Assembly: GCF_002210105.1 (NCBI RefSeq)
Contig: NZ_AQQU01000007.1
Span: forward strand, 209,402 to 273,401
DNA: 64,000 bases
Source: Oceanicola sp. 22II-s10i
GTDB taxonomy: Bacteria; Pseudomonadota; Alphaproteobacteria; Rhodobacterales; Rhodobacteraceae
Direction: 5' to 3'
Shown piece after piece: positions 5,971-11,059 of this stretch. The position numbers were made by a program, and so were the translations under genes. Numbering within the stretch: position 1 is the stretch's first letter; each line of letters begins with the position of its first letter. The notes beneath the pieces are model-generated. The model did not search any database, was not told where the DNA came from, and saw only the letters and a program-made list of their open reading frames with translations.

Positions 5971-6393
5971 TCAGTCGTCGCGATGAACCTTCTCGCGCCG
6001 CTCGTGACGCTCCTGCGCCTCGAGGCTCATGGTAGCGATCGGCCGCGCATCGAGCCGCTTGAGGCTGATCGGCTCACCGGTCACTTCGCAATACCCGTAT
6101 TCGCCCTCGTCGATCCGGCGGAGCGCCGCGTCGATCTTGGACACCAGCTTGCGCTGACGGTCACGGGTTCTGAGTTCCAGTGCGCGATCGGTCTCTTCGC
6201 TCGCGCGGTCTGCGACATCGGGAATGTTACGCGTGCTGCCCTGCAGACCTTCGATGGTCTCCCGGCTGTCTTCGAGGATCTCATCCTTCCAGGCCAGCAA
6301 CTTTCTCCGGAAATATTCGAGCTGACGCTCGTTCATGAAAGGTTCGTCTTCAGCGGGCTGATAGTCATCAGAGAGAAACGTCTCCGCTTTCAT
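5971..6393 (-). CDS. dksA: RNA polymerase-binding regulator DksA (one-cysteine type)
   Basis: A 140-residue DksA homologue that works with ppGpp at the RNA polymerase secondary channel. A coiled coil spans about 20-95 and its tip carries D59, D62 and A64 (IPDVADRASEE), matching the functional tip residues D71, D74 and A76 of E. coli DksA. The C-terminal globular domain keeps only one (C102, YGYCEVTGEP) of the four zinc cysteines; the others are replaced (T105, M122, E125 region). This is the known alphaproteobacterial form, which folds without a classical zinc finger. The start has AAGGAG 8 bases upstream. A strong terminator follows. Confidence 0.92.
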   Translation of the reverse strand: MKAETFLSDDYQPAEDEPFMNERQLEYFRRKLLAWKDEILEDSRETIEGLQGSTRNIPDVADRASEETDRALELRTRDRQRKLVSKIDAALRRIDEGEYGYCEVTGEPISLKRLDARPIATMSLEAQERHERREKVHRDD

Positions 6394-6699
6394 CCACAAG
6401 GCTCCTTCAAAAACCGGCCGTGTCCGTCGTTTTTGGATCACCGACGACCACAGAGCCACCCCACGCGAGCATCTACCCCTTTCGTTCCCCCATGTCACTA
6501 CACAATGCTGAAAATGCTCGCTTCCCATTCCGAGGTGCGTATCGAGCCGACGACGGATGTCCATGCGATTGCCTCTTGCGTCCGTCCGGGGCCGAGGCAA
6601 TCGTGACCTCCAGCGGACAAGGGTGGGCTATTGGGGCTCCATCCTGATGGTCCGCTGCGCCGGCGGTCCGGGACCGCCGATTTTGTCGGGGCGTATTTC
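6394..6699. other. Intergenic region between dksA and the VHL-like gene
   Basis: This 306-bp divergent spacer must hold the promoters of dksA (minus) and of the exported protein gene (plus). I see no convincing -35/-10 pair and no conserved small gene. The open frames crossing it lack ribosome-binding sites and family features. Confidence 0.5.
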
Positions 6700-8040
6700 A
6701 TGTCTTCATTTCTCCCGCGCCACGCGTGGTGCATGGTTCTGTGTGTGTCCATTCTGTCGTTTTCACTGACTGCCGGGCGTTCCGAGGAATGGGGAAATGC
6801 CTGGTCCGAGGTCCGAGGCTGGACCGTATATCAATCCGAAGACACCGGGTGTCACGCGAGTCGCAACATCGCCACCACGATGGAGCTGGGGATGCTGGTG
6901 TCCCCGGCGGGCAATTGGGAAATGCTGCTGTCGACCCAGACCGCCCACGACATCAGCGTGCCCGGCAGCTGGACTGTCGACGGGCAGTCGCATGAGACCG
7001 AATTCTATTCCTACGAGGGCTGGTACCGGGTTCCGGTCGACGGCCCCGAACGTCGGACGCTTGCCGCGGGCCGGACTCTGGTGGTCCAGACGCCGACAGA
7101 ATACGAGGCGTTCCAGTTGGACGGCATGACCGCCATGCTATTGAAAATGCAGGAATGTTGGGAAAGCGCGACCAACCCTTCGCCGGACAGCAACAAGGCA
7201 CCAGTCGAAGCCCTGCCCAAGCCCGGCACGGGCGCCGAGACGCCGCGCGACGCGACCCGGGCGGTCTATGGGCAGGCCCGTGGGTGGACGATCTATTCGA
7301 CGACCGCCTACGGCGAATACAGCGGTTGCCGGATGGAACGTGGCGGCGGGTTCGACTTTTCCCTGACCCGCAATGTCGGATACTGGACGTTCTCGCTCCC
7401 CGTGTCGCTGCCGCAGGACACGCTTGCCGACGTCATCCTCGACATCGACCGATACAGCTTCGACCTCCGCATGATCGCGTCGTCGAGCGGAGAGCTGACG
7501 GCCCGGATCGATCCTGCATTGGTGCAGCGGATCGCGCAGGCCGGTGTGATCCAGGTCGTGGTGAATGGCGCCTCGCACGGACTGTCGGCCAGCGGGACGC
7601 AGGCGGCCATCTCGAAGATCGGCGAATGCGACGACCGGCGCGGACGGACCGCGGCGGCGGCCCCTGCCCCGTCTCCGCGGCTACCGGATCGCAACGCACA
7701 ACCGGGGATCAAGCCGGTGCCGCCGCACATCCGCATTCCCGGCGGCGACAGCGATGCCTATAAGATGGGCACCGGCTGTCCGGCGGTCGGGTCGGTCAAG
7801 TCGCCCAACCTTCAGGACTGGGGCAACATCACCTTCGTCAACCGGTCTGACCGCGCGGTCCTCATCTACTGGCTGGACTACGATGGGCTGCCGGTCGAGA
7901 TGGCCGGGCTGGGCCGGAACGAGCAGATCTACATCAACTCGACAGCCGGGCATTTCTTCGTGGCCAAGGACAGCGACTTTGCCTGCCATGGCGGAGTGAT
8001 CGAGGTTCCACTGGGGGAAAACACACATACGATCCGTTGA
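6700..8040 (+). CDS. Exported protein with two internal repeats and a C-terminal VHL-beta-like domain
   Basis: A 446-residue protein with an N-terminal signal peptide (about 1-26, MVLCVSILSFSLTAG core). Residues 39-153 and 194-310 are two copies of an unnamed domain: each begins RGWT[V/I]Y, has GC about 10-15 residues later, and ends with K-x-x-EC (C51/C153 and C210/C310 could form one disulfide each). A Pro/Ala linker (316-345) leads to residues 363-446, which match the eukaryotic von Hippel-Lindau beta domain: ITFVNRSDRAVLIYWLDYDG, then a gap-free 30-residue alignment through GHFFVAKD. Of the VHL hydroxyproline-pocket residues, W88, S111 and H115 are kept (W391, S414, H418), while Y98 is M401 and W117 is F420. 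Start chosen for the signal peptide. Base composition looks somewhat lower in GC than its neighbours. The ligand is unknown. Confidence 0.78.
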   Translation: MSSFLPRHAWCMVLCVSILSFSLTAGRSEEWGNAWSEVRGWTVYQSEDTGCHASRNIATTMELGMLVSPAGNWEMLLSTQTAHDISVPGSWTVDGQSHETEFYSYEGWYRVPVDGPERRTLAAGRTLVVQTPTEYEAFQLDGMTAMLLKMQECWESATNPSPDSNKAPVEALPKPGTGAETPRDATRAVYGQARGWTIYSTTAYGEYSGCRMERGGGFDFSLTRNVGYWTFSLPVSLPQDTLADVILDIDRYSFDLRMIASSSGELTARIDPALVQRIAQAGVIQVVVNGASHGLSASGTQAAISKIGECDDRRGRTAAAAPAPSPRLPDRNAQPGIKPVPPHIRIPGGDSDAYKMGTGCPAVGSVKSPNLQDWGNITFVNRSDRAVLIYWLDYDGLPVEMAGLGRNEQIYINSTAGHFFVAKDSDFACHGGVIEVPLGENTHTIR

Positions 8041-8167
8041 AAGCCCGCGGACCCGACCACATCCTTGCAACCCGGCCCCTGTGACCTGCCGACCGGCAGG
8101 CTGCGGATTGCGGGTCATGCCGAAGCGCACTAGTGTCGATCCCGACACGTCACGAGGAATGGATCGC

Positions 8168-9007
<840 letters not shown>

Positions 9008-9224: not shown

Positions 9225-9683
9225 ATGGCGGAGCGGTCGTTGATCGTGCGCCCGTTGGAAGCGTCGGACCGGGCCGACTGGGAACGTCTCTGGGATCTGT
9301 ATCTCGAGTTCTATCACACCTCGACCACGCCCGAGGTGCGGGATGTCTATTTCCAGCGACTGCTCGGCAAGGATCCGCAGGATTTCAGCTGTCTGATCGC
9401 GACGCTTGACGGCCGCGCCGTAGGGCTTACGCATTACCTGTTCCATCGCCACGGCTGGAAGATAGAGAACGTGTGCTACCTGCAGGACCTTTACGCCGAT
9501 CCCGACGTGCGTGGCACCGGTGTCGGGCGTGCGCTGATCGAGGCGGTCTATGCCGCCGCCGATGCTGCCGGCGCGCCCTCGGTCTACTGGCTGACCCAGA
9601 CCGGCAACGCGACCGCGCGGCTGTTGTATGACCGGATCGCCCAGCCCACCGATTTCATGAAGTACCAGCGGGTTACCGGATGA
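9225..9683 (+). CDS. GNAT family N-acetyltransferase
   Basis: A 152-residue GCN5-related acetyltransferase. The acetyl-CoA motif A is clear: LQDLYADPDVRGTGVGRALIE (about 86-106) with the RGTGVG pyrophosphate loop. C-terminal motif B follows (VYWLTQTGNATARLLYDRIA). AAGAGG lies 7 bases before the ATG. It overlaps the next gene by 4 bp (ATGA), so the two are coupled. The acyl acceptor cannot be read from the sequence. Confidence 0.9.
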   Translation: MAERSLIVRPLEASDRADWERLWDLYLEFYHTSTTPEVRDVYFQRLLGKDPQDFSCLIATLDGRAVGLTHYLFHRHGWKIENVCYLQDLYADPDVRGTGVGRALIEAVYAAADAAGAPSVYWLTQTGNATARLLYDRIAQPTDFMKYQRVTG

Positions 9684-11059
9684 AGCTCGCCTTCGCCCCG
9701 GTCATTCTGGCCCTGACGGTCGGCTGCCAGCCGATGGACTACAACCCCGAGCCCGCTTCGCGCGCGGCGGCAGCGCCGGCCGGCCTGCAGATGCAGCCGA
9801 TGAAGCTGTTCTCCGAGGCGCGCGGGGGACAGGCCCGGATCACCCAGTCGAACAGCGACATCGCCCGCGACTTCCTCGATCTGACCTTCATGCTCGAATC
9901 CGGGCGGGCGCTGCCCGTTCTCACCCGGTTCGAGGAGCCGATCCGCGTCCGCATCAGCGGCGCGCCGCCGGCCGGGATGACGACCGAGCTCGACCGCGTC
10001 CTGAAACGGATGCGGGGCGAGGCGGACATCGACATCCAGCGCACCAGCGGCGAGGCGAATGTCATCATCCAGGCTGTCTCCAGCGCCCAGATCCGCAAGC
10101 ATCTGCCGCAAGCCGCCTGTTTCGTGGTGCCGAACGTCACCTCGCTGTCCGACTACGCGGCCGCGCGCCGCAACGACGGCGCGTCCTGGACCACCCTGAC
10201 CGAGCGCAAGCGGATCGCGATCTTCGTGCCCAACGACGTCAGCCCGCAGGAGGTCCGCGACTGCCTGCACGAGGAACTGGCACAGGCGATCGGACCTCTG
10301 AACGACCTCTACCGGCTGGACAGCTCCGTCTTCAACGACGACAACATCCACACCGTCCTGACCTCGTTCGACATGCTGATCCTGCGTGCATATTACGATC
10401 CGCGCCTGCATTCCGGCATGACCCGCGACGAGGTCGCAGCGCGCCTGCCCGAGATACTGGCGCGGCTGAACCCGGCGGGCGCGAACCGTGGCGCGCAGTA
10501 TATCAGCGCCACCCCGCGTCCGTGGATCGAGGCGATCCAGACCGCCCTCGGGCCGGGCGCCTCGGCCCCGAACCGACTCCGTGCGGCGCAGCGCGCCTTG
10601 GACATCGCGATCGCTCAGGGCTGGAACGATCACCGCCTCGCCTTTTCGCATTACGCCCTCGGCCGTCTGGTCCAGGCACGCGATCCCGCACAGGCCGTCG
10701 CCCATTACCGCAGCGCCGACATCATCTATGCCCGCAGCGGCACAACGGCGATCCACCGGGCATTTGTCCGCACCCAGCTCGCCGCCCATTCCCTCGCCCG
10801 CGGCGATGCCTCCGGCGCACTGCGCACCCTGCGCGGTCAGGCGGAACTGGCCCGCCGTTATGAGAACGCGGCGCTTCTCGCCTCGATCCAGATGCTGGAG
10901 GCCGAGGCGCTGGATTACACCGGTGACGCGGACCAGGCACGCAAGGTCAGGCGGGACAGTATCGGCTGGGCGCGTTATGGCTTCGGTCCCGACTGGGCCG
11001 TCCGCGCCAAGCTGAGCGAGGTCGCCGCCCTGAACCCGAAAAAGACCGGAGGGTCGTGA
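9680..11059 (+). CDS. DUF2927 family lipoprotein
   Basis: A 459-residue exported protein. The N-terminus ends in a lipobox-like ALTVGC (Cys16), so it is probably a lipoprotein. The middle (about 50-250) matches the DUF2927 family as I remember it, with a conserved CLHEELAQAIG segment (HEE plus Gly) that resembles a metal-protease-type helix but lacks a full HExxH. The C-terminal part (about 285-440) is helical and repeat-like (ALDIAIAQGW, YALGRLVQARDP, LRTLRGQAELARR), possibly TPR-type. The start overlaps the GNAT stop. Function unknown. Confidence 0.72.
   Translation: MKLAFAPVILALTVGCQPMDYNPEPASRAAAAPAGLQMQPMKLFSEARGGQARITQSNSDIARDFLDLTFMLESGRALPVLTRFEEPIRVRISGAPPAGMTTELDRVLKRMRGEADIDIQRTSGEANVIIQAVSSAQIRKHLPQAACFVVPNVTSLSDYAAARRNDGASWTTLTERKRIAIFVPNDVSPQEVRDCLHEELAQAIGPLNDLYRLDSSVFNDDNIHTVLTSFDMLILRAYYDPRLHSGMTRDEVAARLPEILARLNPAGANRGAQYISATPRPWIEAIQTALGPGASAPNRLRAAQRALDIAIAQGWNDHRLAFSHYALGRLVQARDPAQAVAHYRSADIIYARSGTTAIHRAFVRTQLAAHSLARGDASGALRTLRGQAELARRYENAALLASIQMLEAEALDYTGDADQARKVRRDSIGWARYGFGPDWAVRAKLSEVAALNPKKTGGS

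What the first reader, a model, noticed from the sequence alone, without database searches (positions are those of the whole stretch)
6700..8040. Exported bacterial protein ending in a von Hippel-Lindau beta-like domain
Residues 363-446 match the VHL beta domain. From DYDG to VAKD the alignment to human VHL (FDGEP... to LFRD) runs 30 residues with no gap, and before it NRSDRAVLIYWLDYDG parallels NRSPRVVLPVWLNFDG. Of the five hydroxyproline-pocket residues, W88, S111 and H115 are kept (W391, S414, H418), while Y98 is Met and W117 is Phe. In eukaryotes this domain reads prolyl hydroxylation in the cytoplasm; here it is exported and fused to two unknown domains. It might recognise a modified peptide or envelope ligand.
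Basis: partly seen in the sequence, partly recalled or inferred. Interest (0 to 1): 0.75.

Follow-up and report, generated by a model that had tools for sequence, protein, structure and literature searches.

The report
Exported bacterial VHL domain, altered pocket
A bacterium carries a likely exported protein whose last part has the sequence and predicted fold of the human VHL domain that reads hydroxylated proline; such domains turn up in many bacterial phyla, some joined to relatives of proline-cutting enzymes, so this one would likely bind proline-type peptides outside the cytoplasm.

Summary
The domain as such is not new: Pfam and UniRef names already record bacterial VHL-beta proteins. 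Less expected: small bacterial VHL-beta proteins keep the whole hydroxyproline pocket (WY[ST]HW in 41 of 46), and 14 of 116 VHL proteins found by a DNA pattern join the domain to peptidase-type domains, 7 of them DPP IV-type. That points to Pro/Hyp-peptide recognition.
The window's pocket is a variant (Y98M, W117F) shared with related IalB-VHL proteins. VHL genes show no link to one prolyl-hydroxylase family or to hydroxyproline epimerase. Hydroxyproline binding by this protein is unproven; likeliest is a proline-type peptide ligand in the periplasm.

The parts
6700..8040 (+). gene for the IalB-like / IalB-like / VHL-beta protein, 446 aa
   Evidence: ORF; Pfam VHL
6700..6780 (+). residues 1-27, likely signal peptide (end approximate)
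   Evidence: hydrophobic 11-25, mean 2.2; by inspection, no predictor available
6814..7161 (+). residues 39-154, first copy of the IalB-like domain (X1), Cys51 and Cys153
   Evidence: own profile hit; hhalign X1 group vs X2 group probability 99.1; not modelled with confidence
7279..7632 (+). residues 194-311, second copy of the IalB-like domain (X2), Cys210 and Cys310
7777..8037 (+). residues 360-446, VHL beta domain, Cys360 and Cys429
7870..7872 (+). W391 = human W88, kept
7900..7902 (+). M401 at human Y98, changed
7939..7941 (+). S414 = human S111, kept
7951..7953 (+). H418 = human H115, kept
7957..7959 (+). F420 at human W117, changed
5971..6600 (-). dksA, left border of the conserved locus
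   Evidence: Pfam DksA_N 5.9e-31; synteny
8159..9007 (+). MoxR-like AAA ATPase gene, right border of the conserved locus (coding start approximate)
   Evidence: Pfam AAA/AAA_5; present in 22 of 22 genus genomes; synteny

Best explanation
The gene encodes a protein that is likely exported and whose C-terminal domain matches the human von Hippel-Lindau beta domain in sequence and predicted fold, carried behind two copies of a domain predicted to fold like IalB, and it would act in the periplasm as a receptor for a proline-containing peptide. Shown by sequence or comparison: the VHL beta match, the duplication of the front domain, one cysteine pair per domain, the W88/S111/H115 set kept and Y98M/W117F changed, and the standing place between dksA and moxR in several genera. 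Predicted: the fold of the VHL domain and of the second front domain, and export. Inferred: the bacterial VHL beta domain in general is an exported Pro/Hyp-peptide pocket, as the five pocket residues are among its more conserved positions and as it was joined, at either end, to one DPP IV-like subfamily. Inferred with less certainty: in the window's subfamily the pocket was retuned (no Tyr hydroxyl to hold the backbone carbonyl, Phe in place of the pocket-lining Trp), so the ligand is probably a proline or other altered residue rather than the HIF-type 4-hydroxyproline peptide.
For: Sequence. Fold. Pocket: WY[ST]HW in 41 of 46 small proteins and 22 of 42 domains of the family and genus loci; after thinning the 88 to 66 at 60% identity the five pocket positions rank 1, 2, 7, 8 and 11 of 61 by entropy, p 5e-4. 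Roles of these residues in human VHL: PMC9528729, passages. Export: 39 of 46 small proteins have a hydrophobic N-terminus against 1 of 46 for residues 46-90. Fusions: 7 DPP IV-type S9, 3 matrixin-type, 3 caspase/CHAT, 1 TAP-like among 116; L136 is closest to DPP IV and prolyl tripeptidyl aminopeptidase; in this subfamily VHL sits N-terminal in five and C-terminal in two; six of the seven read WYTHW, the seventh, L074, has His at 98. Retuning: all 11 domains without W117 also lack Y98 in the family set of 42. Locus.
Against: The window protein lacks two of the five pocket residues. Own genome: no PF13640 match and only a weak proline-racemase-family match, E 7.2e-6. In 295 family genomes VHL presence shows no link with PF13640 (4 of 27 against 78 of 268, p 0.17) or with a strong PF05544 match (13 of 27 against 108 of 268, p 0.54). 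Neighbours of VHL genes show no common theme. None of the 14 peptidase fusions had a hit of the X profile, so the window's function is argued from cousins. One DPP IV fusion (L074) lacks Y98. The 116 proteins were picked by a pattern that demands W88, H115 and W117. Related fusions are not independent events. Pocket residues may be kept for the fold alone. No binding data exist here.
Confidence: 0.45

Rival explanations
1. The bacterial VHL beta domain is an exported carbohydrate- or envelope-binding sandwich. The pocket residues are kept because they hold the fold together or bind a non-proline ligand, and the prolyl-peptidase fusions are incidental.
For: Fusions also include SH3_3 (13 of 116), WD40, LRR, ricin-type lectin, RTX and Hint parts; no genomic link with PF13640 or strong PF05544 matches.
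Against: The catalytic families in the lists I saw are peptidases (14 proteins), half of them DPP IV-type, leaving aside a Hint domain and hydrolase models that overlap the S9 domains. S111, H115 and Y98 have specific hydrogen-bond roles in human VHL.
Confidence: 0.28
2. In this one protein the VHL domain has lost its ligand and is only a structural end domain behind the IalB-like pair.
For: Y98M and W117F; dksA lies only 188-735 bp from moxR in 20 of 22 genus genomes, too close for an X-VHL gene, so the gene is dispensable.
Against: W88 and H115 are kept in all 11 X-carrying domains of the family set, and S/T111 in 10 of them; the M/I98-F117 pair recurs in several genera, as a retuned pocket would, not random decay.
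Confidence: 0.2
3. The cell hydroxylates its own exported proteins on proline and this protein reads the mark, as in animals.
For: Same fold and partial pocket.
Against: No PF13640 match in the own genome; 4 of 27 VHL-positive family genomes have one against 78 of 268 others. Other hydroxylase families were not searched.
Confidence: 0.05

Closest known systems
Human pVHL beta domain (Pfam PF01847; PDB 1lqb, 6i7q)
   Different: no alpha domain follows, so no elongin/cullin docking part; likely exported; a cysteine pair (360/429) conserved in the nine aligned members; Y98M, W117F
Bacterial 'VHL beta domain-containing proteins' (UniRef names; Litorilituus protein, PMC9002001: outline, passages and one section read)
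   Same: same domain; the small ones mostly have an export-type N-terminus (39 of 46)
   Different: 40 of the 46 small ones read WYTHW; the window protein has two IalB-like domains in front and the altered pocket. The Litorilituus paper reads its protein as a tumour suppressor
IalB, invasion-associated protein B (PDB 3dtd)
   Different: 14% identity; no IalB sequence match with the X profile; Pfam gives only weak DUF1176; here duplicated and joined to VHL
DPP IV / prolyl tripeptidyl aminopeptidase (S9) with VHL, e.g. L136
   Same: shares the VHL beta domain, in L136 with the full pocket
   Different: an enzyme; the window protein has no catalytic domain that Pfam recognises

Membership tests
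VHL beta domain (PF01847) | Pfam curated cut-off (21 bits) | tested here: inconclusive
   18.8 bits on the protein, 21.9 on the genome frame
VHL beta domain (PF01847) | profile similarity to known members | tested here: met
   human VHL E 2.1e-11, next hit 0.045
VHL beta domain (PF01847) | beta-sandwich fold of pVHL 62-152 | tested here: met
VHL beta domain (PF01847) | five-residue hydroxyproline pocket | tested here: not met
   three of five kept; Y98M, W117F
VHL beta domain (PF01847) | binding of hydroxyproline peptide | not testable with these tools
   needs a binding assay
pVHL E3 substrate receptor | alpha domain that docks elongin C | tested here: not met
   the protein ends with the beta domain at residue 446
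IalB family | IalB fold | tested here: met
IalB family | match to a Pfam or PDB IalB sequence | tested here: not met
   no such family at E 10 or at E 1 for 12 X sequences; no IalB chain among PDB sequence hits

The most novel reading that the evidence does not exclude
The hydroxyproline reader of animal oxygen sensing is a borrowed bacterial part: an ancient exported Pro/Hyp-peptide pocket that bacteria attach to prolyl peptidases, tandem arrays and adhesins, and that the ancestors of animals took up and moved into the cytoplasm. The window protein is a retuned branch of this bacterial module that reads a different proline-type mark in the periplasm.
Probability: 0.25. Interest if true: 0.85.

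Novelty: new variant of a known kind. Interest (0 to 1): 0.62.

Why it matters
A large set of bacterial domains with the same pocket, mostly export-type, several joined to DPP IV-type enzymes, makes two questions testable: what the pocket bound before HIF, and whether animals got it from bacteria. The natural variants (Y98M, W117F) are a ready series for pocket specificity.

Tried and rejected
Whole-protein search of 5.8 billion proteins with the single sequence: only the window's own fragment. With the alignment A3: that and P0048. Genome-contig scan with the single VHL domain: 48 pattern matches, none confirmed.

Hydroxyproline link through the genome: PF13640 and PF05544 give no association; reported as evidence against. 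The Fisher test on PF05544 took 125 genomes over the cut-off, for which I could not tell whether the own genome is one; one search repeats it with E below 1e-50 (121 genomes), same outcome. Genomes with a Y98 pocket against others for the epimerase: 9 of 16 and 4 of 11, p 0.44 (pocket, epimerase, tallied by hand).

Gene neighbours: 88 same-strand neighbours, no common family (25 of 100 families shown). Phages: no match; plasmids: 3 records, all 'hypothetical protein' (one query, P0016). Promoter and terminator scan: nothing above shuffles. Coordinates of the models were not available, so pocket geometry was not measured. The DPP IV-VHL model (mean pLDDT 69.1) is too weak to place the VHL domain relative to the active site; I used it only for the fold of the enzyme.

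Papers: searches listed no study of bacterial VHL domains other than PMC9002001 in the library held (open-licence PMC only). The eLife hit shows no occurrence in its main text.

Full report
The observation. The ORF 6700-8040 (+) codes for 446 aa. Pfam VHL covers residues 372-425 at E 0.0017, 18.8 bits, under the cut-off of 21, and 21.9 bits on the genome frame. Against 177,635 PDB sequences the single protein finds human VHL as the 24 best of 26 rows, E 0.0011 to 0.002. A profile of nine related VHL domains (A6) finds human VHL at 2.1e-11, gapless over 60 residues, with the next hit at 0.045. Some of these nine came in through PF01847, others through the window protein alone.

How widespread. 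PF01847 rings in 3 of 22 genomes of the genus, 27 of 295 of the family, 15 of 244 drawn from the order, 7 of 398 drawn from the phylum, and 0 of 14 controls in each. The window protein itself matches in 5 of 60 genomes, the own one included, all in the own genus. P0048, on a contig of the same length as G008:C6, is named Pseudooceanicola nanhaiensis, so the genus is probably Pseudooceanicola (Rhodobacterales). Among proteins of about VHL-domain size the profile A1 finds 46, 75-141 aa. Their record titles name Proteobacteria, Poribacteria, Binatota, Planctomycetota, Actinobacteria, Cyanobacteria, Gemmatimonadetes, Armatimonadetes, Chloroflexi, Verrucomicrobia, Lentisphaeria, Firestonebacteria, Terriglobia, Nannocystis and Bacteroidetes.

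Pocket. In human VHL, Ser111 and His115 bind the hydroxyl, Tyr98 binds the carbonyl, and Trp88 and Trp117 line the site (PMC9528729, passages); the pocket is almost invariant in animals (PMC6650433, passage). At 88, 98, 111, 115, 117 the 46 small proteins read WYTHW 40 times and WYSHW once; the 42 distinct domains of the family and genus loci read WYTHW 18 and WYSHW 4 times, and WMSHF, the window's type, 5 times. P0005 and L031 look like the same protein and are counted in both sets. After thinning 88 domains to 66 at 60% identity the pocket positions rank 1 (H115), 2 (W88), 7 (W117), 8 (S/T111) and 11 (Y98) of 61 by entropy, p 5e-4. In the 116-protein set W88, H115 and W117 are fixed by the pattern, so only the free positions count there: Y98 in 75 and S/T111 in 82 of 83 thinned domains. 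Differences from human also exist: position 109 (Ile in human) is Gln in 29 of 46, 13 of 42 and 83 of 124 domains of the three sets, and position 90 (Asn) is Asp in 44 of 46, 37 of 42 and 121 of 124.

The window's variant. In the family set no domain that lacks W117 keeps Y98 (23 Y98/W117, 0 Y98/non-W117, 8 and 11 without Y98). Ten of eleven X-carrying domains there have the altered pocket against nine of 31 others; one WMSHF domain, in L018, carries no X domain. Six X-VHL proteins in the pattern set have WY[ST]HW, but they were selected for W117. I read this as one retuned branch; the counts are not corrected for relatedness.

Fusions. Among the 116 proteins, singly scanned or scanned in the set A7: S9 with DPPIV_N in L046, L070, L111, L136, L137 and L142, DPPIV_N in one further member, which the alignment shows to be the truncated L074; matrixin-type in L043, L059 and L115 (HExxHxxGxxH in all three; the VHL part of L043 is seen by my profile, but not by Pfam); caspase in L093 and L151, CHAT in L156, TAP-like hydrolase in L097. 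That is 14 of 116, all of peptidase kinds (CHAT as a peptidase relative and TAP-like as tripeptidyl aminopeptidase are recalled). Esterase-, DLH- and S15-type models also match, over the S9 domains; one protein has a Hint domain. Limits: 25 of 43 families were shown for L071, and 29 ORFs under 150 aa were scanned only, where 25 of 76 families were shown. The S9 set is one subfamily with VHL in front in five and behind in two. L136 is closest in the PDB to DPP IV (E 5.5e-43), and in fold to prolyl tripeptidyl aminopeptidase and DPP IV (E 4.3e-39). Six S9 fusions read WYTHW; L074 has His in place of Tyr98.

Export. 39 of 46 small proteins have a hydrophobic 11-mer in the first 45 residues; the same rule on residues 46-90 gives 1 of 46. 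Of the seven failures several are fragments by eye. For the 116, 77 of 100 ORFs with a 5' end have one in the first 80 residues (no control was run for these).

Place in the genome. moxR is found in 22 of 22 genus genomes. In 20 of them dksA lies 188-735 bp upstream; in the window the distance is 1559 bp and holds this gene; in G008 two VHL genes fill it. Of eight loci with X-VHL genes fetched from other genomes, five show dksA - X-VHL - moxR (G008 of the own genus and G142, G259, G098, G127 of four other genera) and three do not (G166, G010, G018). The architectures differ: A-B-VHL (window, G142), B-VHL plus A-VHL (G008), A-VHL (G259), B-VHL (G098, G127). So this is an old resident of that junction, often lost and reshuffled (inference). 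A profile of X-VHL finds full-length relatives (E below 1e-80) in 7 of 295 family genomes, the own one included, and X domains with other partners or alone.

Evidence against hydroxyproline here. The own genome has no PF13640 match and only a weak PF05544 match, 7.2e-6. VHL-positive family genomes: PF13640 in 4 of 27 against 78 of 268 (p 0.17); strong PF05544 in 13 of 27 against 108 of 268 (p 0.54). Neighbours carry no theme. Other hydroxylase families were not searched.

Verdict. Identity is secure. Function is inferred: an exported receptor for a proline-type peptide, its pocket retuned away from the animal form. Bacterial VHL-beta proteins are already named in databases and in one paper (PMC9002001), so the kind is known; the pocket conservation, the DPP IV fusions and the IalB-VHL branch are what I did not find in print.

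Noticed in passing
   Followed up: partly
L016, L027, L029, L033, L037 and L117: A VHL domain sits inside long repeat proteins with glycine/aspartate nonapeptide-like repeats; RTX repeats and Hint_2 each match one member of set A7, by its sequence most likely L117; L016, probably the same gene as L117, and L033 end in a Hint-like stretch by eye.
   Followed up: partly
L041, L056, L061, L072, L095, L104, L113, L124, L133, L145, L150, L155: 12 of the 116 pattern hits are Poribacteria, ten of them 407-456 aa long with a front part I did not identify; this group is known from sponges (recalled), which contain collagen.
   Followed up: no
L204, L206, L207, L213, L214: The IalB-like X domain also occurs without a VHL domain, joined to other small cysteine-bearing parts; it looks like a general exported module of this family.
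   Followed up: partly
L069:4315-5730 (-): VHL together with a lysozyme-inhibitor LprI match and SH3_3 in one protein.
   Followed up: no
window 9680-11056 (+): DUF2927 protein stands downstream of moxR in the window and in five of the eight fetched loci; a GNAT gene lies between in four of those five.
   Followed up: no
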